A DNA stretch of 34,624 nucleotides from Solirubrobacteraceae bacterium (lineage in GTDB: Bacteria > Actinomycetota > Thermoleophilia > Solirubrobacterales > Solirubrobacteraceae), in assembly GCA_025934395.1 (NCBI GenBank), contig JAICYC010000026.1:1-34624 (forward strand), written 5' to 3'. The number at the start of each line of letters is the position of its first letter. Position 1 is the first letter of the stretch. A program made the position numbers and the translations under genes. Under the pieces are notes generated by a model. The model worked only from the letters and a program-made list of their open reading frames with translations. It searched no databases and had not been told where the DNA came from. Of this stretch, positions 7,259-32,947 are shown in pieces.

Positions 7259-9148
7259 ATGCGTCGATTCGGGCTCATCATCATCGCCGCCGCGCTCGTC
7301 TGGGGCGTGCTGGCCCTGGCGACCGGCGCCGCCGACCTGCACATCGGCGGCGGCTCCGATGGCGCCACCCCCGTCGGGAGCGCCGCGCCCGACTGCCTGC
7401 CCGGCTCGATCCAGCACAGCGCCGCACTGCCGGGCACCCGCGTGGACGTCTCGCCCGCGCCGGGCACCGTCACCGCCAACCCCGCCACGCAGATCAGCTT
7501 CCTCGGGGCCCCGGCGTCGCAGATCCGCTCGGTGACGGTCGTCGGCAGCGACAGCGGGACGCACCCCGGCAGGCTGCGCGCGTACTCGCAGGGCGACGGC
7601 GCGAGCTTCGAGCCCTCGGCGGCATTCACCAGCGGGGAGGACGTGCAGGTCCGCGCGACCGTCGGAGCCGGCGCGGGCAGGCCCGTGTCGTTCTCCTTCC
7701 GCGTGGACGACCCCTACCCGACGAACCACACCGCCGGCTTCGGCAACCCGCGCGCGGCGCCCGCCGACTATCAGAGCTTCTACACCCTGCCGGGCGCGCA
7801 GCCGCCGATCCTCGATGTGACGGTGCCTGACCGCGATCCCGGCGCGGGCGACATCTTCACGACCAACGGCCCCGGTGCCGGGCAGTACGGGCCGCTGATC
7901 TACACGCCCGCGGGCCGGCTGGTCTGGTTCCAGCGGCTGCAGGGCGGGGAAGCGGCGGAGGATCTGAACGTGCAGAGCTACGAAGGCCGTCCGGCGCTCA
8001 CGTGGTGGCGCGGGAAGGTGCTGGACCTGGGCTTCGGCCAGGGCGAAGACGTGATCATGAACTCGCGCTATCAGACGATCGCGCGGATCGCCGGCGGCAA
8101 CGGCCTGAAGGCCGACCTGCACGAGCTCCAGCTCGAGCCGCACGACGTGGCGTACATCACCGCGTACAACCCGATCCGCTGCAACCTGCGGTCGATCGGG
8201 GGCAGGCGCCGGGCGGCGATCGTGGACACCGCGATCGAGGAGATCGACCTCCGCACGGGCCTGGTCCGCTGGGAGTGGCACAGCCTCGACCACGTCGCCG
8301 CGTCGGCGTCCGAAGTGGAAGTCCCCTCCAACGGGGCGCCGTGGGACTGGTTCCACCTCAACTCGATCGATCGCGAGCCCAACGGGGATCTGTTCATCTC
8401 CGCGCGCAGCACCTGGGCGGGCTACCAGCTGCAGGCAGGGACCGGGGTGATCCTGTGGACCCTCGGCGGCACCAAGAGCTCGTTCAAGCTCGGCAGCGGC
8501 GCCGCGCTGGCGTGGCAGCACGACGGGCGCGTGCAGCCCGGCGGCGAGGTCACGTTCTTCGACGACGGCTCCAACCCGCCGATCCACAGCGAGTCACGGG
8601 CGGTGCGCATCCGGCTCGACCTCGCCGATCACACCGCCGAGCTGGTGTCCTCCTACACCCACCGGAACCCGCCGCTGCTTGCGGCGAGCCAGGGCAACAT
8701 GCAGACGCTGCCGGACGGCAACACGCTCGTGGGCTACGGCGGGGTGCCCGCGATCAGCGAGTACGGCAGCGACGGCGGCCTGCTGTTCGACGCGCACGAG
8801 CCCTACGACATGATCTTCTACCGTGCCTACCGCCGGCCGTGGAGCGCGACGCCCGCGACGTCTCCGGCGGTGCTCGCGAGCCTCAACAACACCGGCGAAG
8901 AGACGATCGTGCACGCGAGCTGGAACGGCGCCACGGGGGTGACGAGCTGGCGCGTGCTCGCCGGCGGCAAGGGCGGAGCGCTCGCGCCCCAGGCGACGTT
9001 CCGCGCGGACGGGTTCGAGAGCTCGATCACGCTGCCGAAGAGGTTCGCGGCGGTGCAGGTGCAGGCGCTCGACGGTGCGGGCAGCGTGCTCGGCAGCTCC
9101 GCAACCGCGCGCGTCGAGAGCTACGCCGCGGCGCTCGCGGCGCGGTGA
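7259..9148 (+). CDS. arylsulfotransferase (ASST) family protein, membrane-anchored or secreted
   Basis: 629-residue extracytoplasmic protein of the Arylsulfotran_2/ASST type, enzymes that move a sulfate group between phenolic donors and acceptors without PAPS. Seen: a single N-terminal hydrophobic segment (LIIIAAALVWGVLALATGA, residues 6-24) acting as signal or anchor, an approximately 150-residue Ig-like N-terminal region, then the propeller. Candidate catalytic residues: His288 (DLHELQLEPHD), His366 (WDWFHLNSID) with Arg383 (SARSTWAGY) and His421 (AWQHDGRV), with LWTLGGTKSSFKL between. These match the order His, His-Arg, His of Escherichia coli ASST, where the middle His and the Arg are 18 residues apart (17 here). 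The 78 and 55 spacings nearly equal those of the fusion protein downstream. Substrate unknown. ATG start without ribosome site. Confidence 0.87.
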   Translation: MRRFGLIIIAAALVWGVLALATGAADLHIGGGSDGATPVGSAAPDCLPGSIQHSAALPGTRVDVSPAPGTVTANPATQISFLGAPASQIRSVTVVGSDSGTHPGRLRAYSQGDGASFEPSAAFTSGEDVQVRATVGAGAGRPVSFSFRVDDPYPTNHTAGFGNPRAAPADYQSFYTLPGAQPPILDVTVPDRDPGAGDIFTTNGPGAGQYGPLIYTPAGRLVWFQRLQGGEAAEDLNVQSYEGRPALTWWRGKVLDLGFGQGEDVIMNSRYQTIARIAGGNGLKADLHELQLEPHDVAYITAYNPIRCNLRSIGGRRRAAIVDTAIEEIDLRTGLVRWEWHSLDHVAASASEVEVPSNGAPWDWFHLNSIDREPNGDLFISARSTWAGYQLQAGTGVILWTLGGTKSSFKLGSGAALAWQHDGRVQPGGEVTFFDDGSNPPIHSESRAVRIRLDLADHTAELVSSYTHRNPPLLAASQGNMQTLPDGNTLVGYGGVPAISEYGSDGGLLFDAHEPYDMIFYRAYRRPWSATPATSPAVLASLNNTGEETIVHASWNGATGVTSWRVLAGGKGGALAPQATFRADGFESSITLPKRFAAVQVQALDGAGSVLGSSATARVESYAAALAAR

Positions 9149-9417: not shown

Positions 9418-12381
9418 ATGAGCGTGGAGACAGCAGCGCCCGCGGCGGCTGTCGAGCCGCCGGTGCAGGAGCGTTCCGGGGAGGGGATGGGCTGGCTTCT
9501 CGCGGTCTGCTGCGTGGCTCAGTTCATGGTCATCCTCGACCTCAGCATCGTCAACGTAGCGCTGCCGGACATCCAATCCGCGCTGGGCTTCACCGCCCCG
9601 CAGCTGCAGTGGGTCGTCGACGCGTACGCGATCTCGTTCGCGGGCTTCCTGATGCTGGGCGGGCGAGCGGCCGACCACTTCGGACAGCGGCGCACGTTCG
9701 TGATCGCGCTGCTGATGTTCGGCCTGATGTCGCTCGTGGGCGGCCTCGCGCCCGAACAGCTCACGCTGATCGGCGCACGCGCGATCCAGGGGATCGCGGG
9801 CGCCCTGATGGCGGCGTGCTCGCTGGCGATCATCACCGCCTCGTTCCCGCCCGGCCCCAAGCTGCATCGCGCGATCGGCACGTGGGCGGCGATGAACGGG
9901 CTCGGCGGTGCCGCGGGCGTGCTGCTCGGCGGTGTGATCACCCAGCTCCTCAGCTGGCGCTGGGTCCTGCTGATCAACCCGCCGATCGCGATCGGCGCGG
10001 CGCTCGTGGCCTACCGCGTCGTCACCGAGCGCGTGCGCGCGCGTCCGGACGCGACCTTCGACCTGGCAGGCGCGCTGACGCTGACGCTCGGGCAGGTGGT
10101 GCTCGTGTTCGGCGTGGTCGAAGCGGGCCTGAAGGGGTGGAGCACCGTCGACGCGCTCGGGCCGATCATCGGAGGAGTCGTGCTGCTCCTCGCCTTCGGG
10201 GTGATCGAGTCCCGGTTCGCCCGCGAACCGCTGATCCCGTTCAAGGCGCTCAGCCTGCCGCTGCAGATCGCCAACACGATCGTGCTGCTGTTCAGCGCGA
10301 CGATCTTCCCGATGTGGATCCTGAGCTCGCTCTACCTGCAGCAGGTGCTCGGGCTCTCGCCGCTGGACACGGGCCTGATCTTCCTGCCGATGACCGTCGT
10401 GATCGCGATCGTGGCCTCGCGCGCGGGCAAGCTCGTGAGCGTGTTCGGCGTCAAGGCGGTGCTGGGCAGCGGTCTGGTGATGCTGACCGCGGGGATGGTG
10501 CTGCTCGCGCGGATCGGACCGAGCGGCAGCGGCATCGTGTACATCCTGATCCCCGGCCTGCTCACGGCTGCGGGCATCGCGATGTCGATCGTCCCGTCGA
10601 CGATCGCCGCCACGCAGGGAGCCAAGGACGGGCAGGCGGGCCTCGCCTCGGGCCTCGTCAACACATCGCGCCAGGTCGGCGGCGGGCTCGGGCTTGCGGT
10701 GCTGATCACGCTCGCCACCCAGCACACCACGCACCTGATCGGCGCCGGCCAGCAGGTCCCCGACGCGCTCACGCACGGCTTCAGGCTCGCGTTCTGGATC
10801 GGCGCGGGGCTCGCCGCCGCCGCGACGCTGTTGACGTTCGTCGCGCTGCCGCGGCCGGCGGAGGCGCCGAGCATCCCGGTGCGGCGGCTCGGCGTCGGGA
10901 TCCTCGCAGTGCTGGGCGTGTTCGCGGCGCTCACCGCCGCGTTCGCGGGGTCAACGGCGCCGCCGATCGGGCACTACACGCTCGACGGCGCCTACAGCTT
11001 CGTCGCGACACCGTCGCTGCACCCGCCCAAGGTGCGCGTCATCAAGCGAGCCAGCGGCAGCCGCCTCGCGCCGGGCTACATCTTCACGACGAACTTCCTC
11101 AACCTCAACGAACCGCCGATCCAGGGGCAGAGCGGGCCGCTGATCCTCGATCGCGACCTGCAGCCTGTGTGGTTCCAGCCGGTGCCGGAAGACGTCGTCG
11201 CTGCGAACCTCTCGCTCCAGCGCTACGAGGGCAAACCCGTGCTCGCGTGGTGGCAGGGCTTCGTCACGAACACCGGCTCCACCGAGAGCGGCGAATACGT
11301 GATCGTCGACCAGCACTACCGCACGGTGGCCCGCCTGAAGGCGACGGGCGGTTGGGTGCTCACGCTGCACGAGATCGTGATCGACGGCGACAAGGCGTGG
11401 GTCACGGCCAACAAGAACGTGCCGATGGATCTCTCCAGGTACGGCGGCGCCTACAACGGCGCGCTCGTGGACGTGGCCGTGCAGGAGTACGACCTGAGGA
11501 CGGGCAGGCTGCTGAGCAACTGGGACGCGCTCAAGCACATCCCGCTCGGCCAGTCCGAAGCGACGCTGCCGACGAACGGCTTCCCCTGGGACGCCTACCA
11601 CGTCAACTCGATCGACCTCGTCGGAAAGGACAGGTTCCTCGTGTCGATGCGCAACACGTGGGCCGCCTACCTCGTCGACCGCCGTACGGGCGCGATCGAG
11701 TGGACGCTCGGCGGCAAACACTCGAGCTTCAGGTTCGCGCGGGGCGCGTCGTTCCAGTGGCAGCACGACGTGACGATCGCGGGTTCGCGCGTGGACCTCT
11801 TCGACGACCACTGCTGCAGGCAGAAGAGCGGCGGCACCTCCGTGCACGCCACCGGTCCCTCGCGCGGAGTCGTGCTGCAGCTCGACGAACGCGCACGCAC
11901 GGCAACCCTCGTCGGCCAGTACGGCGACAGGGACGGCTTCGAATCGGAATACATGGGTGACGCCGACAGCCAAGCCGACGGCAACGTGTTCGTCGGCTGG
12001 GGCTCGGTGCCGTACTTCTCGGAGTACGACAAAGGCGGCCACCTGATCTTCGAAGGCGAGCTCCCGGGGCCCGATCTGAGCTATCGCGCCACCCTGCGGC
12101 AGTGGACCGGTCAGCCGCTCACGCCCCCTGCGGCCGCCGCTCGCCGCTCGGGATCGGGCGTGACGGTCTACTCGAGCTGGAACGGTGCCACGCGCCTTGC
12201 GTCGTGGCGCCTGCTCGCAGGCACGAGCGCGGGCTCCGGGATGAAGCCGATCGCCACCCATCCGCGGTCGGGGTTCGAGACCGCGATCTCCGCCCCGGCG
12301 GGCTATGCCAGGTTCGAGGTGCAGGCGCTCGACGCCGCCGGGCGCGTGATCGGGACCTCTCGGCCGTTCGCCGCGGGCTGA
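9418..12381 (+). CDS. MFS (DHA2) exporter fused to C-terminal arylsulfotransferase domain
   Basis: 987-residue fusion in one uninterrupted frame. Residues 22-485 are a 14-helix drug:H+ antiporter of the DHA2 type: motif D1 VILDLSIVNVALP, motif A LGGRAADHFGQRR, motif C GLGGAAGVLLGGV. Residues 488-511 (VRRLGVGILAVLGVFAAL onwards) form a fifteenth helix preceded by Arg-Arg, so by the positive-inside rule the following domain lies outside. Residues 515-985 are a complete ASST-type propeller with His651 (TLHEIVIDGD), His728 (DAYHVNSID) plus Arg745 (VSMRNTWAAY), and His783 (QWQHDVTI), the same spacing as in the free paralogue upstream. Inferred role: export of a phenolic or other acceptor coupled to sulfation at the outer face. 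Both halves look intact. Followed by a terminator-like hairpin. Alternative: the ASST-like domain only binds or senses ligand. Confidence 0.93.
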   Translation: MSVETAAPAAAVEPPVQERSGEGMGWLLAVCCVAQFMVILDLSIVNVALPDIQSALGFTAPQLQWVVDAYAISFAGFLMLGGRAADHFGQRRTFVIALLMFGLMSLVGGLAPEQLTLIGARAIQGIAGALMAACSLAIITASFPPGPKLHRAIGTWAAMNGLGGAAGVLLGGVITQLLSWRWVLLINPPIAIGAALVAYRVVTERVRARPDATFDLAGALTLTLGQVVLVFGVVEAGLKGWSTVDALGPIIGGVVLLLAFGVIESRFAREPLIPFKALSLPLQIANTIVLLFSATIFPMWILSSLYLQQVLGLSPLDTGLIFLPMTVVIAIVASRAGKLVSVFGVKAVLGSGLVMLTAGMVLLARIGPSGSGIVYILIPGLLTAAGIAMSIVPSTIAATQGAKDGQAGLASGLVNTSRQVGGGLGLAVLITLATQHTTHLIGAGQQVPDALTHGFRLAFWIGAGLAAAATLLTFVALPRPAEAPSIPVRRLGVGILAVLGVFAALTAAFAGSTAPPIGHYTLDGAYSFVATPSLHPPKVRVIKRASGSRLAPGYIFTTNFLNLNEPPIQGQSGPLILDRDLQPVWFQPVPEDVVAANLSLQRYEGKPVLAWWQGFVTNTGSTESGEYVIVDQHYRTVARLKATGGWVLTLHEIVIDGDKAWVTANKNVPMDLSRYGGAYNGALVDVAVQEYDLRTGRLLSNWDALKHIPLGQSEATLPTNGFPWDAYHVNSIDLVGKDRFLVSMRNTWAAYLVDRRTGAIEWTLGGKHSSFRFARGASFQWQHDVTIAGSRVDLFDDHCCRQKSGGTSVHATGPSRGVVLQLDERARTATLVGQYGDRDGFESEYMGDADSQADGNVFVGWGSVPYFSEYDKGGHLIFEGELPGPDLSYRATLRQWTGQPLTPPAAAARRSGSGVTVYSSWNGATRLASWRLLAGTSAGSGMKPIATHPRSGFETAISAPAGYARFEVQALDAAGRVIGTSRPFAAG

Positions 12382-12441: not shown

Positions 12442-13041
12442 TCAGGCCGCGAACGCGGGCCAGAGCGTGTCGAGCACCCGCTCGCTCCAGCCTTTCTTGG
12501 GCGCTCCATCCGCCATGTACTGGTAGAGGAAGCTGCCCATCAGAGCTTGCGCGGCCAGGGCGCTGTCGAGGTCCATGCGCACCTCTCCGCGATCCTTGCC
12601 GCGGTCGAGCGCGCCCGCGATCTCGTTGCGGCGCGGCAGGATCATCCTCTCGCGGAACTCGCGCACCAGCTCGGGGTGCTTGGTCTCCTCCACGATCAGC
12701 GTCCCCGCGAGCCGCACCGTGAATCGGCGGCGCGCGAACTCGAGGTGCGCGAGCAGGTCTCCGCGTGCGCTGCCCGTGTCGATCGGCGGCACCCGCGCGG
12801 TCTTGTCGGCGATCACCGCCGCGACGAGCTCCGACTTGTCGCGGTACCGGCGGTAGATCGCGGGCTTGCCCACACGAGCCGTCTCCGCCACGCTCGCGAT
12901 CGACATGCGCGAGTAGCCGTCACGCAGCAGCAGTTGCCAGGCGGCTCCGAGAATCGCCGAGTCGACGGTCTCGTCGAGCGGTCGTCCCGCAGCGCGCCCC
13001 GAAGGCTCCTGGTCCTCGAATGCGCGGTCGCGCCGTGGCAT
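12442..13041 (-). CDS. TetR/AcrR family transcriptional regulator
   Basis: 199-residue one-component regulator. Seen: N-terminal helix-turn-helix at about residues 20-65 (TVDSAILGAAWQLLLRDGYS, IASVAETARVGKPAIYRRYR, DKSELVAAVI) and a ligand-binding C-terminal domain (TetR_C_11-like; ERMILPRRNEIAGALDRGKD). The start is uncertain: ATG at 13041 gives normal length, while ATG at 13125 or 13146 would add low-complexity N-terminal residues, and 13146 overlaps the palindrome. It is divergent from the ABC/MmpL operon and most likely represses it and itself, releasing when it binds the exported compound. The candidate operator GATACGTATC lies between them. Confidence 0.9.
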   Translation of the reverse strand: MPRRDRAFEDQEPSGRAAGRPLDETVDSAILGAAWQLLLRDGYSRMSIASVAETARVGKPAIYRRYRDKSELVAAVIADKTARVPPIDTGSARGDLLAHLEFARRRFTVRLAGTLIVEETKHPELVREFRERMILPRRNEIAGALDRGKDRGEVRMDLDSALAAQALMGSFLYQYMADGAPKKGWSERVLDTLWPAFAA

Positions 13042-13134
13042 CGGCGCAAGTCTCGCAAACACCGCGGCCTCCGCGCCCGCGTGACGGGGGGCCCCCGGCT
13101 CCGGCCGGCCGGAGGAAGATTCCATTTCAGGATC

Positions 13135-13144
13135 GATACGTATC
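13135..13144. promoter_or_regulatory. candidate TetR operator GATACGTATC
   Basis: Perfect 10-base palindrome in the gap between the tetR-type gene and the ABC operon. It lies just upstream of the -10-like TACGCT (13147-13152) or TATGGT (13153-13158) facing the ABC operon, so bound repressor would block RNA polymerase. The AT content stands out from the surrounding GC-rich sequence. Symmetry does not extend beyond 10 bases, short for TetR. Confidence 0.45.
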
Positions 13145-13196
13145 ATTACGCTATGGTAACGTCACGGAATCCGATTCGCATCCGAAGGGAGCACCG

Positions 13197-13217
13197 ATGG
13201 CAGAGGCAGTCCGATGA
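13197..13217 (+). CDS. six-codon leader ORF (MAEAVR) overlapping ABC ATPase start
   Basis: ATG-GCA-GAG-GCA-GTC-CGA-TGA is preceded by the strong ribosome site GAAGGGA six bases upstream, whereas the ABC ATPase ATG at 13214 has no ribosome site of its own and overlaps the leader stop as ATGA. Ribosomes loading at the leader could reinitiate on the ATPase. A translated leader is inferred from this arrangement; no codons suggest classical attenuation. Confidence 0.4.
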   Translation: MAEAVR

Positions 13218-14176
13218 CCCACTCCCGCGACGGCGTACCAGCGGTGGAGGTCAACGGCCTCCGCAAGACCTACCCCGGTGGGGTGGAAGCCGTGAAGGGG
13301 ATCGACTTCGTGGTGGCGCCCGGCGAGGTGTTCGGGCTGCTCGGCCCCAACGGTGCAGGCAAGTCGACGACGATCGGGATGTTGACCACGACGGTGATCC
13401 CGAGCGGGGGATCCGCACGCCTGGCTGGCTTCGACGTGGCCGAGCAGCCGCTGCTCGCGCGAGGCGTCAGCAGCGTCGTGTTCCAGGACGCCGTGGTGGA
13501 CTCGTCGCTGACCGGGCGCGAGAACCTCGAGCTGCACGCCCGCCTCTGGGGCATCGCGGCCGCCGATGGGCGCGCCCGCATCGACGACGTGAGCGATGCC
13601 CTCGGCGTCTCCGAGCTGCTGGAGCGACCCGTCGGCAGCTTCAGCGGCGGCCAGCGGCGGCGTCTGGAGATCGCGCGCGCTCTCGTGTCGAGGCCGCGCG
13701 TGCTGTTCCTCGACGAGCCCACCGTCGGGCTTGATCCACGCATCCGCCACGAGCTGCTCGACGTGGTCGCGAACCTGCGCGGTCGCGAGCAGACGACGAT
13801 CGTGCTCACCACGCACTACCTCGACGAGGCGGAGCGGCTGTGCGATCGAGTGGCGATCATCCGCCTCGGTGAGATCGTCGCGATGGACTCGCCGCGCGCG
13901 CTGCTGGCAGGTCTCGGCAACGAGATCCTCGAGCTGCGCGTCTCGGGCGAGGCCGAGCACGCGATCGCGGAGCTGCGCGAGCGCGGCGTCGGCGGCGAGG
14001 ACGCGTTCGCGATCGGCGCACGTCTGACCATCCCCCTGCACGGGTGCGCGCCGTCGGAGGCGCTCAGCGTCCTCGAGGAGGCTCGGATCCGCGTGTCGGA
14101 GATCGCGACGCGAACGCCCACGCTCGACGACGTCTACCTGAACCGAACCGGCGAGCGCCTCGCGGCCGTCGCCTGA
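13214..14176 (+). CDS. ABC transporter ATP-binding protein (DrrA type)
   Basis: 320-residue ATPase of a drug/lipid exporter (daunorubicin-resistance DrrA subfamily). Seen: Walker A GPNGAGKS (44-51), Q-loop Gln91, signature FSGGQRRRLE (143-152), Walker B VLFLDE with Glu168, D-loop VGLDPR, H-loop His201 in LTTHYLDEAE, and a C-terminal extension of about 90 residues typical of DrrA ending TLDDVYLNRTG. Works with the permease encoded 23 bases downstream; two copies of each would form the exporter. Start overlaps the MAEAVR leader stop. Likely controlled by the divergent TetR protein. Confidence 0.95.
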   Translation: MTHSRDGVPAVEVNGLRKTYPGGVEAVKGIDFVVAPGEVFGLLGPNGAGKSTTIGMLTTTVIPSGGSARLAGFDVAEQPLLARGVSSVVFQDAVVDSSLTGRENLELHARLWGIAAADGRARIDDVSDALGVSELLERPVGSFSGGQRRRLEIARALVSRPRVLFLDEPTVGLDPRIRHELLDVVANLRGREQTTIVLTTHYLDEAERLCDRVAIIRLGEIVAMDSPRALLAGLGNEILELRVSGEAEHAIAELRERGVGGEDAFAIGARLTIPLHGCAPSEALSVLEEARIRVSEIATRTPTLDDVYLNRTGERLAAVA

Positions 14177-14199
14177 GAGCACTCGAGAAAGGAACCACG

Positions 14200-15060
14200 A
14201 TGGCCACGACCGCCACCGCAACCGCACCCCTCACGCTCGCGCCGCCGGAGACCCGCGTGCGACCTGCAAGCGCGCTGTTGACGCTCGCGCGCAGGCGCGC
14301 GATGCTCACCTCGCGGACCCCTCGCCAGATCGCCGTGCCGCTGCTCGGCCCCGCGCTGCTCGCCCTGATCCTCGCGCCTGCGCTCAAGAAGGCGACCGGC
14401 GGGCTGCACTCCCACATCGACTACACCTCGTTCGTCGGCGTGGGGGCGGTAGGTCTCGTGATCCCGTTGAGCTGTGTGTTCGCCGGTCTGAGCGTGCTCG
14501 TCGACAGACACTCGGGCGCGCAGCGCGAGCTGCTCGCGGCGCCGGTGGGGCGCGCGTATCTGGTGCTCGGCAACATGCTCGTCGCGATCGTCCTGTCCGC
14601 GCTGCAGGCGCTGGTCGTCGTGGGCCTCTCCGCGCTTCGTGGAGGGTCGTTCCACATCACCGGCGCGGGCGTGGCGTGGTTCCTTGCGGCCGCGCTGCTG
14701 TTCACGGTGTTCATGTACGGGCTGGCGGAGACCGTCGCGAGCCGTGTGCACAAGGAGGAGGACTACGTGGGCGCCACCCCCGTGCTCGCGATCCTGCCGT
14801 TCTTCTTCGCCGGGGCCCTGTTCCCGATCTCGGCGATGCCCGCCGCGCTGACGACGATCGCCAAGCTGCTGCCGCTCACGCATGCGCTCGCGCTGATGCG
14901 CTACGGCTTCGTCGATCCGTCAGGTCGCGGGCTGCACGACATCTGGGGGATGGGCAACGCCACGACCGAGGCGTGGCTCAGCCTCGGGGTGGTCGCGCTC
15001 TTCGCCGCGGCGCTCGTGACGATCTCGGTGCGCGTGTTCGCGCGGTCGGCCGTCGCATGA
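14200..15060 (+). CDS. ABC transporter permease (ABC-2/DrrB type)
   Basis: 286-residue membrane subunit with six predicted helices, of the ABC-2 type. Seen: cytoplasmic N-terminus to about residue 45, helix 1 QIAVPLLGPALLALILAPAL, helix 2 around VGAVGLVIPLSCVFAGLSVL, and the C-terminal pair ending ALFAAALVTISVRVFA. The segment GALFPISAMPAAL is the typical ABC-2 loop near the fifth helix. The ATG at 14200 has an AAAGGA ribosome site about seven bases upstream; the longer open frame upstream is antisense-like. Partner of the preceding ATPase. Its stop overlaps the MmpL start (ATGA), so the three transport genes are translationally coupled. Confidence 0.93.
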   Translation: MATTATATAPLTLAPPETRVRPASALLTLARRRAMLTSRTPRQIAVPLLGPALLALILAPALKKATGGLHSHIDYTSFVGVGAVGLVIPLSCVFAGLSVLVDRHSGAQRELLAAPVGRAYLVLGNMLVAIVLSALQALVVVGLSALRGGSFHITGAGVAWFLAAALLFTVFMYGLAETVASRVHKEEDYVGATPVLAILPFFFAGALFPISAMPAALTTIAKLLPLTHALALMRYGFVDPSGRGLHDIWGMGNATTEAWLSLGVVALFAAALVTISVRVFARSAVA

Positions 15061-17288
15061 GCGCGACCGCGGCGGGATCGGCGGACAGCAGGATCGCGCG
15101 CCTGGCGCGTTGGGCGATGGCGCGCCGCCTGCGCATCGCGGCGGCATGGACGGCTCTGCTCGTCATCACCATGCTCGCCTCCAACGCGGCGGGAACGCAC
15201 TTCAAGAACGACCTCGAGCTCGCGGGCACCGACTCGCAGCGCGCCAGCACGCTCCTGCGCGAGAGCTTCCCCGCCAAGGCCGGCGACGTGGACGAGGTCG
15301 TGCTGCACACGAGCGGGGGATCGGTCGACTCGCCCTCCGTGCGTGCCCGCGTCGCGCCGATGCTGCAGGCCCTCTCTGCGCTCCCCCACGTGACCGGAGT
15401 CGCCAGTCCGTTCCTGCCCGGCAGGAGCGCACAGATCGCGGGGGACGGGCGCACGGCGTTCGCGGTGGTGAGCTTCGACGGGCAGGCCACCGAACTGCCC
15501 GTGGGCGACGTGGAACGCGTGATCGCCACGGCGCAGCGCGCGCGGACGCCGTCGCTGGCGGTCGAGCTGGGTGGCCAGGGCATCGAGCAGGCGCAGAGAC
15601 CGTCGCTCGGCGCCGCGACCGCGATCGGGCTGCTCGCGGCGATCGTGATCCTGCTCATCACCTTCGGCTCGGCGCTTGCGATGAGCCTTCCGATCGTGAC
15701 GGCCCTCCTCGGGCTCGGCACCGCGCTGGCGGCCGCGGGGCTCGCCTCGCACGTGGTCGAGACCCCTGATTTCGCCACCCAGCTCGCCGCCCTGATCGGA
15801 CTCGGGGTGGGGATCGACTACGCGCTGTTCGTCGTGACGCGATTTCGCACCGCCTATCGCGAGCACGAAGAGCTGGAGGCGGCGGTCGCCTCCGCGATGG
15901 ACACCGCCGGCCGCGCGGTGCTGTTCGCGGGAGCGACGGTCATCATCGCGCTCCTGGGGTTGTTCTCCCTCGGCGTCAGCCTCCTCTACGGGGTTGCGGT
16001 GGCGGCGTCGCTGTCGGTCCTGTTGACGATGCTCGCGGCGCTCACCGCGCTCCCGGCGCTGCTGTCCCGCTTCGGCGAGCGGATCGGCGCGGCGGGTTCC
16101 CGTGGGGACGCCGCGGGTTCCCGTGGGAGCAGCGGGCGCGGGCGCGCGCCCCTGTGGCCGCGCTGGACGGCGGCGGTCCAGCGCCGGCCGCGGCTCGCGC
16201 TGGGCGCGGGCCTCGCCGTCATGCTCGTGCTCGCGGCACCTGCGACCGCGCTGCGTCTGGGGTTCAGCGACGCCGGCAACGACCCGGCCGGCAAGACCAC
16301 GCGGCGCGCGTACGACCTCCTCGCGGCGGGGTTCGGCTCCGGGTTCAACGCCCCGTTGAAGGTGGTCGTGGCGGGCGCGGGTGCGAGCCGGCCGCAGACA
16401 GCCTCCCGCGTGAGCGCGACGCTGCGCGAGACGCCCGACGTGGCCGGCATCTCGCAGCCTGAGCGCAGCGCCGACGGCCGCACGCTGGTGCTCACCGCCT
16501 ATCCGGCGTCCGCGCCGCAGGCGCTCGCGACCACTCGGCTCGTGGACAGGCTGCGAGCCGAGCGCCTGCCGCCGCTGGCGCGGCAGGAGGGAGTCCGGAT
16601 CCTGGTGGGTGGCCAGCAGGCCACCTCGGTCGACTTCACGAACGTCCTGTCGGGCAAGCTGGCGCTGTTCATCGGGGTGGTCGTGGGGCTGTCCGCGCTG
16701 CTGCTGCTCGCGATGTTCCGCTCGGTCGCGATCCCGATCCAGGCGGCGGCGATGAACCTCCTGTCGGTCGCGGCGTCGCTCGGCGTCGTGGTGGCGGTCT
16801 TCCAGTGGGGGTGGTTGGGCTCGCTGCTGGGGGTGCGCTCCGCGCCGATCGAGCCGTTCATCCCCGTGGTCATGTTCGCGATCGTCTTCGGCCTGTCGAT
16901 GGACTACGAGGTGTTCCTCGTCTCGCGCATCCACGAGGCCTGGTCGCGAAGCCGTGACGCCACCGGCGCGATCCACGAGGGCTTCGGCTCGACCGGTCGC
17001 GTGATAACCGCGGCCGCCACGATCATGCTCGTCGTCTTCCTGTCGTTCGTCACGGGCGAGCAGCGCGTGGTGAAGGTGTTCGGCCTGAGCCTCGCCAGCG
17101 CCGTCTTCCTCGACGCGTTCGTGGTGCGCAGCCTGCTGCTGCCGGCCGTGCTGGAGCTGCTGGGAGAGCGCGCCTGGGCGCTCCCGCGCGCGCTCGAGCG
17201 GCTCCTGCCACGGCTCGCGATCGCGGCCTCCGCCGCCCGCCCCGACGGCCCCTTGCCGCGACCGGAGCCCGCACCCGATGCGGCCTGA
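15057..17288 (+). CDS. MmpL/RND family transporter
   Basis: 743-residue inner-membrane proton-driven transporter of the MMPL family, which in actinobacteria exports lipids, lipopeptides or antibiotics. Seen: two repeats each with TM1, an extracytoplasmic domain and a helix bundle; proton-relay Asp-Tyr pairs in GLGVGIDYALFVVTRFR and FGLSMDYEVFLVSRIHE; an internal cytoplasmic loop with a duplicated AAGSRG unit near residues 345-358. Length is usual for the short actinobacterial members. ATG start overlaps the permease stop by four bases. Co-expression with an ABC exporter is uncommon and suggests one substrate class handled by both. Ends six bases before the convergent MerR stop. Confidence 0.94.
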   Translation: MSATAAGSADSRIARLARWAMARRLRIAAAWTALLVITMLASNAAGTHFKNDLELAGTDSQRASTLLRESFPAKAGDVDEVVLHTSGGSVDSPSVRARVAPMLQALSALPHVTGVASPFLPGRSAQIAGDGRTAFAVVSFDGQATELPVGDVERVIATAQRARTPSLAVELGGQGIEQAQRPSLGAATAIGLLAAIVILLITFGSALAMSLPIVTALLGLGTALAAAGLASHVVETPDFATQLAALIGLGVGIDYALFVVTRFRTAYREHEELEAAVASAMDTAGRAVLFAGATVIIALLGLFSLGVSLLYGVAVAASLSVLLTMLAALTALPALLSRFGERIGAAGSRGDAAGSRGSSGRGRAPLWPRWTAAVQRRPRLALGAGLAVMLVLAAPATALRLGFSDAGNDPAGKTTRRAYDLLAAGFGSGFNAPLKVVVAGAGASRPQTASRVSATLRETPDVAGISQPERSADGRTLVLTAYPASAPQALATTRLVDRLRAERLPPLARQEGVRILVGGQQATSVDFTNVLSGKLALFIGVVVGLSALLLLAMFRSVAIPIQAAAMNLLSVAASLGVVVAVFQWGWLGSLLGVRSAPIEPFIPVVMFAIVFGLSMDYEVFLVSRIHEAWSRSRDATGAIHEGFGSTGRVITAAATIMLVVFLSFVTGEQRVVKVFGLSLASAVFLDAFVVRSLLLPAVLELLGERAWALPRALERLLPRLAIAASAARPDGPLPRPEPAPDAA
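16092..16127 (+). repeat. 21-base tandem duplication inside mmpL-type gene
   Basis: GCGGGTTCCCGTGGG occurs at 16092-16106 and again at 16113-16127, period 21 bases, encoding AGSRGDA then AGSRGSS in the linker between the two transporter halves. In frame, so tolerated; a possible length-variable site. Confidence 0.7.
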
Positions 17289-22256: not shown

Positions 22257-22360
22257 AGCGGTGACGCTACAGCGTTCGTGGGGTTCGGCGACGTGCGAAC
22301 GCCGCCCGCGCCCGGTGCGGGTGTGAGAGCTCGGCCGATGACCGCCCCGTCCGGTGCGTG

Positions 22361-22366
22361 TAGCCT
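22361..22366 (+). promoter_or_regulatory. possible -10 element (TAGCCT) of hydrolase-LuxR gene
   Basis: TAGCCT lies eight bases before the ATG at 22375; the GGGAGG between them is too close (one base) to act as a ribosome site. Identical hexamer and similar spacing to the element at 1345-1350. Confidence 0.35.
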
Positions 22367-22374
22367 CGGGAGGC

Positions 22375-23412
22375 ATGACCGAGGAGCGGGGGGTCCGGTT
22401 CTTCACCTGGGCTGGTCGCCGCGTCGCCTACGGGGTCACCGGGGACGGGCCGCCGCTGGTGGCGGCCGCGTGGTGGGTGAGCCACCTCGAGCTCGACTGG
22501 CAGGACCGGCGCTTCCGTGACTTCTTCGGCGCGCTCGCGGTGGGTCGCCGGCTCGTCCGCTACGACCGGCCGGGCGTGGGGCTTTCGGACCGCGACGCGC
22601 CGTCGGGACGGCTGACGATCGAGACGGAGGTGGAGCTCCTCGGCGCCCTGCTCGACGAGCTGGACCTCGAGCGCGTGACCCTGTTCGGCGGCTCCTCCGG
22701 GGGCTGCGCGGCGATCGCGTTCGCCGCGCGACACCCCGAGCGCGTGGAGCGGCTGCTGCTGTACGGGACCTACGCCGACGGATCGGCCGTCGCGCCCGCC
22801 CCGGTGCGGGAAGCGGTCGTCGGTGCCGTGCGCTCGCACTGGGGCCTCGGATCGCGGCTGCTAGCGGACGTGTTCCTCGGGGAGGCGGAGTCCGCGGAGC
22901 GGCAGAGGTTCGCGCGTGCCCAGCGCGAGGCGTGCAGCGCGGAGACCGCGGCGGCGCTCCTGGAGCACGTGTACCGCGTGGATGTGCGCGCAGATCTGGC
23001 ACGCGTGCGGGCGCCCACCACGATCGTCCATCGGCGCGAGGACCGCGCGATCCCCTACGAGCTCGGCCGCGGGCTTGCGGCCGCGATCCCCGAGGCCTCG
23101 CTCGTGTCGCTCGACGGCACCGCTCATTTCCCGTGGCTCGGAGACGCGCCAGCCGTCGCGAGCGCGCTGCGTACCGGGTCGGTCGCCTCGCCGCAGCGCG
23201 ACACCGGAGCGTCGCCGTCCGTGCTCCTCTCACCGCGGGAGCGCGAGGTGCTCGCGCTGGTCGCCGCCGGCCTCACCGAGCGCGAGATCGCCGCGCAGCT
23301 CGTTCTCAGCACGCACACGGTCCACCGCCACATGGCGAACATCCGCATGAAGCTGGGTCGCGGCTCCGGTGCGGCGGCGGTCGCCGAGGCGAGCCGCCTC
23401 GGGCTGATCTGA
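22375..23412 (+). CDS. alpha/beta hydrolase fused to LuxR-type helix-turn-helix
   Basis: 345-residue two-domain protein. Residues 10-265 are an alpha/beta hydrolase with [13 protein letters not shown], nucleophile elbow GGSSGG (Ser108), acid Asp223 (RREDRAIP) and His251 (GTAHFPW). Residues 283-345 are a LuxR/GerE DNA-binding domain with [20 protein letters not shown] and [13 protein letters not shown]. The catalytic triad is complete, so the protein may hydrolyse its inducer or use the pocket as a sensor. Start: ATG at 22375; a GTG at 22354 would add seven residues. A hairpin terminator follows. Divergent from the PAS-MBL unit, which it might regulate. Confidence 0.9.
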
Positions 23413-31987: not shown

Positions 31988-32947
31988 ATGAGCGACACGC
32001 CCACCAACACCGACCAGAGGCTGCTGCTGGCGGCCGCCCAGGCAGGGGACGAGCAGGCCTTCCAACGGCTCGTCGAGCCCTACCGGCACGCCCTCGCGGT
32101 GCACTGCTACCGGATGCTCGGCTCGGTGCACGACAGCGAGGAACTCGTCCAGGAGACGCTCCTGCGCGCGTGGCGGGCGCTGAGTCGATTCGAGCCCCGC
32201 GTGCAGCTGCAGACCTGGCTGTACCGGATCGCCACCAACGCCTGCCTCGACGAGCTCGAGCGGCGCCCCCGGCGGCCCGAGCCCGTCGATCCGTTCCCCG
32301 ACAAGCCGATCGGCGAGACCGCGGCGCCGATCTACGATCCCGCCGCGCGATACGCGATCCGGGAGGGGATGGAGCTGGCGCTGCTGCGCGCGATCCAGGA
32401 GCTGCCGGGACGCCAGCGCGCGGTGCTGGTCTTTCGCGACGTGCTCGGGTGGAGCGCGGCGGAGGTCGCCGAGCTGCTGGAGTCCACGGTCGCGTCGGTG
32501 AACAGCGCGCTGCAGCGGGCACGCGCCACGATCGAGCGCCACATGCCCGCGCCGCCATCGGGCGCGCCGGATCGCTTCGAGCGGGAGCTGCTCGGGCGCT
32601 ACGTGCAGGCGTTCGAGCACGACGACGTCGACGGGCTCGTGGCGCTGCTGCGCGAGGACGCGATGCTGCGGATGCCGCCGCAGCCGTCGATCGTGGGCGC
32701 CGCCACGATCGTGCGCTTCCTGCGCGAGCGCGCCTCCGGTGGCGATCTGCGACGGATGCGCCTCACGCCGACACGCGCGAACGGCCGGCCCGCCGTCGTG
32801 GCGCAGCGCTTGGACGCAGAGGGTGAGCTCGCGCCGCACGGGATCCTCGTCCTCGACATCTCCGACGGCGCGGTGATCGGGATCGACGCGTTCATCAAAC
32901 CCCCGCTGCTGGCGCACTTCGGCTTCCACGCGGGCGCCACGGGGTAG
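31988..32947 (+). CDS. ECF sigma factor with SnoaL-like C-terminal domain
   Basis: 319-residue sigma factor of the SigG/SigX5-like type, which carries its own regulatory domain in place of a separate anti-sigma. Seen: region 2 (28-95; HDSEELVQETLLRAWRALSR, WLYRIATNACLDELERRPRR), region 4 (about 130-185; LPGRQRAVLVFRDVLGWSAA, STVASVNSALQRARATIER) and, from about residue 195, a SnoaL-type fold (YVQAFEHDDVDGLVALLRED to FIKPPLLAHFGF). ATG six bases after the truncated relative. The exporter and DUF3224 genes flanking it are likely targets or co-expressed partners. Confidence 0.93.
   Translation: MSDTPTNTDQRLLLAAAQAGDEQAFQRLVEPYRHALAVHCYRMLGSVHDSEELVQETLLRAWRALSRFEPRVQLQTWLYRIATNACLDELERRPRRPEPVDPFPDKPIGETAAPIYDPAARYAIREGMELALLRAIQELPGRQRAVLVFRDVLGWSAAEVAELLESTVASVNSALQRARATIERHMPAPPSGAPDRFERELLGRYVQAFEHDDVDGLVALLREDAMLRMPPQPSIVGAATIVRFLRERASGGDLRRMRLTPTRANGRPAVVAQRLDAEGELAPHGILVLDISDGAVIGIDAFIKPPLLAHFGFHAGATG

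What the first reader, a model, noticed from the sequence alone, without database searches (positions are those of the whole stretch)
9418..12381. One-polypeptide fusion of a 14-helix MFS exporter and an extracytoplasmic arylsulfotransferase domain
Seen: a single uninterrupted 987-codon frame joins a complete DHA2 exporter (motifs D1, A and C) to a complete ASST-type propeller through one extra hydrophobic helix (488-511) preceded by Arg-Arg. Fourteen helices would leave the C-terminus inside; the fifteenth moves the sulfotransferase outside, where PAPS-independent ASST enzymes act. Inference: the exporter hands its substrate to an attached enzyme that sulfates it (or removes or transfers a sulfate) on exit, a modify-on-export machine. 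I do not recall a described example.
Basis: partly seen in the sequence, partly recalled or inferred. Interest (0 to 1): 0.88.

Follow-up and report, generated by a model that had tools for sequence, protein, structure and literature searches.

The report
Exporter fused to outside sulfate-transferring enzyme
Soil bacteria carry one protein that is both a membrane exporter and, on the outer side of the membrane, an enzyme that moves sulfate groups; neighbouring genes suggest that it ships sulfate out on a small carrier molecule made inside the cell and hands it on outside.

Summary
One 987-codon frame (9418-12381) joins a 14-helix DHA2-type MFS domain, a fifteenth helix and a complete arylsulfotransferase (ASST) propeller. 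It is no assembly error: 33 of 40 loci from other genomes hold both domains in one frame, and three His and one Arg of the putative active site are invariant in 35 of 35 aligned fusions. Loop charges and an AlphaFold model (pLDDT 86.9, pTM 0.83) fit 15 helices with the ASST outside. The closest solved ASST is Cpz4 of caprazamycin biosynthesis, whose donor is a polyketide sulfated by a PAPS-dependent sulfotransferase (passages). Such partners recur here: a PF17784 sulfotransferase directly upstream in 9 of 36 loci and in 4 of 4 later ones, an APS kinase near some, and a type III PKS beside or fused to the sulfotransferase. So the MFS part most likely exports the sulfated carrier, the donor, which the ASST domain uses outside. 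Substrates are inferred; in the window's own genome the PKS/sulfotransferase pair lies on another contig.

The parts
9418..12381 (+). whole fusion gene, 987 codons plus stop
   Evidence: conserved in other genomes
9499..10848 (+). MFS (DHA2-like) domain, aa 28-477, 14 helices
   Evidence: Pfam MFS_1 32-425; 14 helices in the AF2 model up to residue 476; nearest solved relative of this part by sequence is EfpA
10849..10887 (+). cytoplasmic linker aa 478-490 with Arg489-Arg490
   Evidence: 3.3 Lys/Arg per sequence over residues 478-491 in the alignment; junction alignment
10873..10944 (+). fifteenth helix, aa 486-509; aligned with the N-terminal signal or anchor of the unfused sister ASSTs
   Evidence: AF2 helix; hydropathy peak 2.40 averaged over 35 fusions; sister N-termini
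10990..12372 (+). ASST (PF14269) propeller, aa 525-985
   Evidence: Foldseek best match Cpz4 9kf4, TM 0.91 by target length
11368..11370 (+). His651, putative catalytic
   Evidence: invariant in 36 of 36 fused and 60 of 60 separate ASSTs; aligned with a His in Cpz4
11599..11601 (+). His728, putative catalytic
   Evidence: as His651
11650..11652 (+). Arg745, putative catalytic
   Evidence: invariant as His651 and aligned with an Arg in Cpz4
11764..11766 (+). His783, putative sulfated histidine (WQHD motif)
   Evidence: as His651; role inferred from E. coli ASST, recalled
11812..11817 (+). Cys799-Cys800, vicinal pair
   Evidence: 36 of 36 fused and 3 of 60 separate ASSTs have it
7259..9148 (+). 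separate ASST directly upstream (629 aa) with an N-terminal hydrophobic segment and extra N-terminal sequence
   Evidence: PF14269 E 3e-46 at 238-512; a same-strand ASST directly upstream in 18 of 36 other loci

Best explanation
It is the membrane step of a two-step sulfation pathway. Inside the cell an APS kinase makes PAPS; a PF17784 sulfotransferase, in some lineages paired or fused with a type III polyketide synthase, puts the sulfate on a small phenol- or pyrone-like carrier; the MFS domain exports that aryl sulfate; the ASST domain, held at the outer face by helix 15, takes the sulfate onto His783 and passes it to an acceptor outside the membrane, releasing the carrier. Shown: the single frame, its conservation, the conserved active-site residues, the topology signals, the gene neighbourhood. 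Inferred: what is exported, that it is the donor, the chemistry, and the acceptor.
For: Fusion conserved: 33 of 40 loci; 31 of 232 genomes of the order (G534 left out as ASST only; G006, G559 and G593 known only from pieces at contig ends); 5 of 248 in the order of G614. Active-site set invariant. Nearest solved protein of the ASST part is Cpz4. PF17784 sulfotransferase directly upstream on the same strand in 9 of 36 loci and in 4 of 4 later, distinct loci (a fifth, L134, repeats L053); in 7 of these 13 its stop codon overlaps an in-frame ATG or GTG of the fusion gene by 4 bases. Within 6 kb of the fusion: 7 PF17784 genes in 6 of 31 fusion genomes against 0.21 expected, and APS kinase in 5 of 31 against 0.13. 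PF17784 present in 28 of 31 fusion genomes against 31 of 201 others of the order. Type III PKS: 20 of 24 matches, one in each of 20 genomes, lie within 2 kb of PF17784, own genome included (C113); one continuous frame with PF17784 in L031; Cys, His and Asn conserved in 10 of 10 aligned. Cpz pathway as summarised in two papers (passages). Topology.
Against: In the window's own genome the PF17784/PKS pair (C113) and the APS kinase (C50) are on other contigs than the fusion. 24 of 36 loci show no PF17784 in the flank held, though many flanks are short. A PKS is beside the fusion in only 3 of 36 loci; 16 of 36 genomes searched have none, and of 8 genomes behind L047-L053 and L057 one has a PKS, with 26% identity to the one beside PF17784. 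Gene-order and co-occurrence tests ignore shared ancestry. Three fusion genomes lack PF17784, all 66-75% complete. PF17784 occurs in 31 genomes of the order without the fusion. Whether Cpz8 belongs to PF17784 was not tested. Two standalone plasmid ASSTs have no such neighbours annotated, so the link is not a general ASST feature. No substrate evidence at all.
Confidence: 0.6

Rival explanations
1. Modify-on-export: the MFS exports the final metabolite, and the attached ASST sulfates it at the exit, using aryl sulfates found or made elsewhere.
For: The enzyme sits on the outer side of the exporter. In the window and in 18 of 36 other loci a second, separate ASST lies directly upstream, so donors and acceptors may be shared among several enzymes.
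Against: The gene most tightly coupled to the fusion is a PAPS-type sulfotransferase, which would make sulfated small molecules inside. The other recurrent neighbour families that were identified (SNF2 helicase, CoA-ligase subunits, acyl-CoA dehydrogenase, sulfatase, hydrolase and others, each in at most 6 of 38 loci) form no obvious cluster for an exported product, but only representatives were examined.
Confidence: 0.2
2. Anchor without coupling: the MFS part is an ordinary exporter and only serves to tether the ASST at the membrane; the two activities are unrelated.
For: The MFS part resembles general drug exporters. Three genomes of the same genus have the closest unfused MFS with separate ASSTs on both sides, so fusion is not needed.
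Against: Those unfused MFS genes still sit between ASST genes. A single N-terminal segment would be enough as a tether, and the sister ASSTs have one. Both domains stay joined in one frame in 33 of 40 loci.
Confidence: 0.1
3. Made as one chain but cut after helix 15 by signal peptidase, so that two separate proteins result.
For: Helix 15 aligns with the signal-like N-termini of the sister ASSTs, and small residues (AFA-GS in the window) follow it.
Against: The A-x-A pattern is not kept (for example L029, L039, L047). Helix 15 is strongly hydrophobic (mean peak 2.41), but three sister segments reach 1.78-2.47 as well, so this does not decide. No signal-peptide predictor was at hand.
Confidence: 0.1

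Closest known systems
Caprazamycin two-step sulfation: type III PKS, PAPS-dependent sulfotransferase Cpz8, ASST Cpz4 (Tang 2013, seen only as cited in PMC4257720 and PMC6731281)
   Same: Same three kinds of enzyme; the nearest solved ASST is Cpz4 itself (9kf4/9kf6); His and Arg positions align.
   Different: The solved Cpz4 chain (472 residues) matches only the ASST part; here the exporter is fused on, the sulfotransferase can be fused to the PKS, and no nucleoside antibiotic cluster was seen in the parts of the window examined. Cpz8 was not compared with PF17784.
E. coli-type ASST (PF05935)
   Same: Weaker match (E 6e-14); three His and one Arg as recalled for the E. coli enzyme.
   Different: Separate periplasmic protein (recalled); no transporter domain.
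DHA2 MFS exporters (EfpA, QacA, EmrB, LmrA)
   Same: 14 helices, motifs D1 and A; EfpA is the best solved relative of the MFS part.
   Different: Extra fifteenth helix and outside enzyme; below the NCBIfam EmrB cut-off (196.6 against 230.2 bits); motif C lacks its Pro.
LplT-Aas MFS-enzyme fusions (recalled, not looked up)
   Same: An MFS transporter joined to an enzyme that acts on the transported compound.
   Different: As recalled, the enzyme there is cytoplasmic and the direction is inward.

Membership tests
PF14269 arylsulfotransferase | profile match above the curated cut-off | tested here: met
   135.5 bits against 27
PF14269 arylsulfotransferase | catalytic His/His/Arg/His in place | tested here: met
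   H651, H728, R745, H783 invariant in 36 fused and 60 separate ASSTs, aligned with Cpz4; role of each residue recalled
PF14269 arylsulfotransferase | PAPS-independent sulfate transfer between phenols | not testable with these tools
   needs an enzyme assay
DHA2 (14-helix drug:H+ antiporter) | 14 helices with motifs A and D1 | tested here: met
DHA2 (14-helix drug:H+ antiporter) | motif C with its conserved Pro | tested here: not met
   Pro absent in 35 of 35 fusions and in the 18 unfused MFS printed, so the neighbouring subfamily shares this
DHA2 (14-helix drug:H+ antiporter) | above the NCBIfam TIGR00711 EmrB cut-off | tested here: not met
   196.6 against 230.2 bits
Cpz-type two-step sulfation | ASST of the Cpz4 type | tested here: met
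   best solved relative, E 4e-83; Foldseek TM 0.91 by target length
Cpz-type two-step sulfation | PAPS-dependent sulfotransferase linked to the ASST | tested here: inconclusive
   directly upstream in 9 of 36 and 4 of 4 later loci; present but unlinked in the window's own genome; kinship of PF17784 with Cpz8 not tested
Cpz-type two-step sulfation | type III PKS making the carrier | tested here: inconclusive
   beside the fusion in 3 of 36 loci; PKS in 20 of 36 genomes, own genome included, each time beside PF17784
Cpz-type two-step sulfation | carrier sulfate is the donor | not testable with these tools
   needs metabolite analysis

The most novel reading that the evidence does not exclude
A sulfate shuttle across the membrane: the polyketide carrier is sulfated inside, exported by the MFS part, stripped of its sulfate by the attached ASST as it leaves, and the free carrier goes back for another round (perhaps by exchange through the same transporter), so that the cell sulfates outside molecules catalytically without PAPS outside. 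The several separate ASSTs of these genomes would share the exported donor.
Probability: 0.25. Interest if true: 0.9.

Novelty: new variant of a known kind. Interest (0 to 1): 0.75.

Why it matters
[quoted passage not shown] PAPS is made inside, whereas ASST enzymes act outside (established knowledge, recalled); how the sulfate crosses is an open step. A protein that is exporter and ASST at once, in some genomes encoded directly after the sulfotransferase that could make the donor, gives that step a concrete, testable candidate. It also adds a kind of transporter-enzyme fusion that my paper searches did not turn up (open-licence papers only).

Tried and rejected
Assembly error: rejected, the same frame recurs in many separate assemblies. 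G559 first looked like a split case; its two pieces lie at contig ends with overlapping protein sequence and read as one gene broken by the assembly. G534 was dropped from the fusion count: its match is an ASST with its own signal-like N-terminus. G006 is counted as a fusion although only its ASST half is seen, cut by a contig end. True split cases: G012, G013 and G017 have the closest unfused MFS (57-58% identical, no hydrophobic stretch after TM14 by eye) with ASST genes on both sides. In the MFS tree they are the sister of the fused group (0.999 for the two together; 0.845 for the fused group, which includes the contig-cut L055); the fused ASSTs form one group (0.982) whose grouping with three signal-bearing ASSTs has 0.881. 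Two standalone plasmid ASSTs (Streptomyces, Rubrobacter) have no sulfotransferase, PKS or MFS neighbour annotated, the gene table being incomplete. In the plasmid collection none of 1619 records with a match covers 80% of the fusion. Phylum sample: 1 of 396 genomes, the own one, so the fusion is uncommon.

Rows dropped: the 35-row alignment takes matches spanning more than 850 residues and drops repeats, so L055 is out. The trees take MFS matches spanning at least 360 and ASST matches spanning at least 380 residues from loci that I chose. Loop limits were set by hand. The APS kinase count leaves out the 8 weak partial matches; the PF17784 count keeps weak ones. L028-L067 and the G genomes overlap (L031 and G562 give the same matches), so their counts must not be added. 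Family F1 mixes PF17784 with type III PKS frames; the counts used are those.

Full report
What is there. The frame 9418-12381 (+) encodes 987 aa without a stop. Pfam finds MFS_1 (32-425) and Arylsulfotran_2 (601-879). The window lies in a 3.0 Mb draft genome in 151 contigs. The most similar named loci are metagenome-assembled Solirubrobacterales. The own genome also holds separate ASSTs: one upstream in the window, two each on C36 and C111, one on C96, besides many MFS genes.

Is it real. One search returned 40 loci, 33 hold both domains in one open frame (L051 and L055 run off the contig inside the ASST), L059 has a broken frame, L060 and L061 are cut by contig ends, and 4 are MFS only. In the order, 32 of 232 genomes pass the threshold; one of these, G534, is an ASST alone, leaving 31, of which G006, G559 and G593 are known only from pieces at contig ends. 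5 of 248 genomes have it in the order of the genome behind L048. An even sample of the phylum gave 1 of 396, the own genome. Records behind the fused loci are labelled Solirubrobacterales, Solirubrobacteraceae, Acidimicrobiales, Acidimicrobiaceae, Actinomycetes, Actinobacteria and, once, Nocardiopsaceae (labels of metagenome bins as deposited).

Anatomy. The junction is TM14, a short linker that usually carries Arg, helix 15, then a stretch with invariant P516 and G518 (often G-A-P-I-G-x-Y) leading into the propeller in 35 aligned fusions. Averaged over the alignment, the stretches that would be cytoplasmic carry 1.8-3.8 Lys/Arg each and the outer ones 0.1-1.3 (limits set by hand), which fits N-inside, 15 helices, C-outside. 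AlphaFold2 with 71 sequences gave pLDDT 86.9 and pTM 0.83, with helices from 21 to 476 and at 486-509, then almost only strands. Foldseek's best match is 9kf4, titled as the crystal structure of Cpz4, then EfpA for the MFS part. H651, H728, R745 and H783 are invariant in 36 fused and 60 separate ASSTs; a Cys-Cys pair at 799-800 is in all 36 fused ones and in 3 of 60 separate ones.

Origin. In FastTree trees the fused MFS domains group together (0.845, with the contig-cut fusion L055) next to the unfused MFS of G012, G013 and G017 (0.999 for both), which lie between ASST genes; the fused ASST domains group together (0.982) next to three ASSTs with signal-like N-termini (0.881). The N-termini of these sisters resemble helix 15 and the conserved stretch after it. 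The simplest reading is one fusion of an MFS with the signal-bearing N-terminus of a neighbouring ASST, the signal becoming helix 15 (inference).

Neighbours. Clustering of flanking frames over 35 fusion loci and 3 split ones and Pfam on representatives gave a PF17784 sulfotransferase, an APS kinase and a sulfatase among the recurrent families; others were an SNF2 helicase, CoA-ligase subunits, an acyl-CoA dehydrogenase and hydrolases. By tblastn, 12 of 36 loci have PF17784, of which 9 have it directly upstream on the same strand; 18 of 36, and the window, have a separate same-strand ASST in that place instead; 4 have APS kinase, 4 sulfatase, 3 type III PKS. Four further loci from three genomes, distinct from the first 36, all have PF17784 directly upstream. 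In 7 of these 13 its stop codon overlaps an in-frame start codon of the fusion by 4 bases; L049 and L059 have a start 7 bases and L052 114 bases after the first base of the stop; L051, L130 and L131 were not resolved by that script. In 31 fusion genomes 7 of 53 PF17784 matches and 5 of 32 strong APS kinase matches lie within 6 kb of the fusion (expected at most 0.21 and 0.13, Poisson P 3e-9 and 3e-7). PF17784 is in 59 of 232 genomes of the order: 28 of 31 with the fusion and 31 of 201 without (Fisher P 1e-16). These P values ignore shared ancestry.

The type III PKS. In L031 a second PF17784 domain is continuous with a chalcone/stilbene-synthase-type PKS (565 aa frame). PF02797 is found in 20 of 36 genomes; 20 of its 24 matches, one in each of the 20 genomes, lie within 2 kb of a PF17784 match, among them own contig C113. 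Eighteen of the 20 are fusion genomes; G001 and G017 are not. Ten aligned PKS keep the Cys, His (HPGG) and Asn (GN) recalled as catalytic, and 15 PF17784 proteins keep G-x-G-x-x-R-T. Of 8 genomes behind L047-L053 and L057 one has a PKS, and it is distant (26%): there the carrier would have to be something else.

Mechanism. In caprazamycin biosynthesis a triketide pyrone is sulfated by the PAPS-dependent Cpz8, and the ASST Cpz4 then moves the sulfate to the antibiotic (passages in PMC4257720, and PMC6731281; the original paper was seen only in a reference list). With the same kinds of enzyme around, the exporter most likely carries the sulfated donor out to its own ASST domain. A tether without coupling and cleavage after helix 15 are less likely but not excluded.

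Known or new. The enzymes belong to known families and the relay is known from caprazamycin. The fusion, its 15-helix layout and its tie to the sulfotransferase/PKS module did not appear in the listings, nor in the passages read of four papers. The library holds open-licence papers only and one search showed 10 of 548, so this is weak evidence of novelty.

Noticed in passing
L031 8886-10580 (+): One frame joins a PF17784 sulfotransferase to a type III polyketide synthase. PF17784 and PF02797 matches share a long frame of the same length in G006, G014, G018, G024, G561, G562 and G563 too; G562 is the genome of L031.
   Followed up: partly
window aa 799-800 (11812-11817): Vicinal Cys-Cys pair 16 residues after the putative catalytic His783, in 36 of 36 fused and 3 of 60 separate ASSTs; role unknown.
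   Followed up: partly
L077 (own contig C111) 1172-6146: Two ASST genes with a sulfatase between them on the other strand.
   Followed up: no
G636 C36 and C45 (L130, L131): One genome with two different fusion genes, each with PF17784 directly upstream.
   Followed up: no
window 22354-23412 (+): Alpha/beta hydrolase joined to a LuxR-type DNA-binding domain.
   Followed up: no
window 31988-32947 (+): Sigma-70 factor with a C-terminal SnoaL-like domain.
   Followed up: no
window 12442-17288: TetR regulator (-), ABC transporter ATPase and permease, and an MMPL transporter just downstream of the fusion.
   Followed up: no
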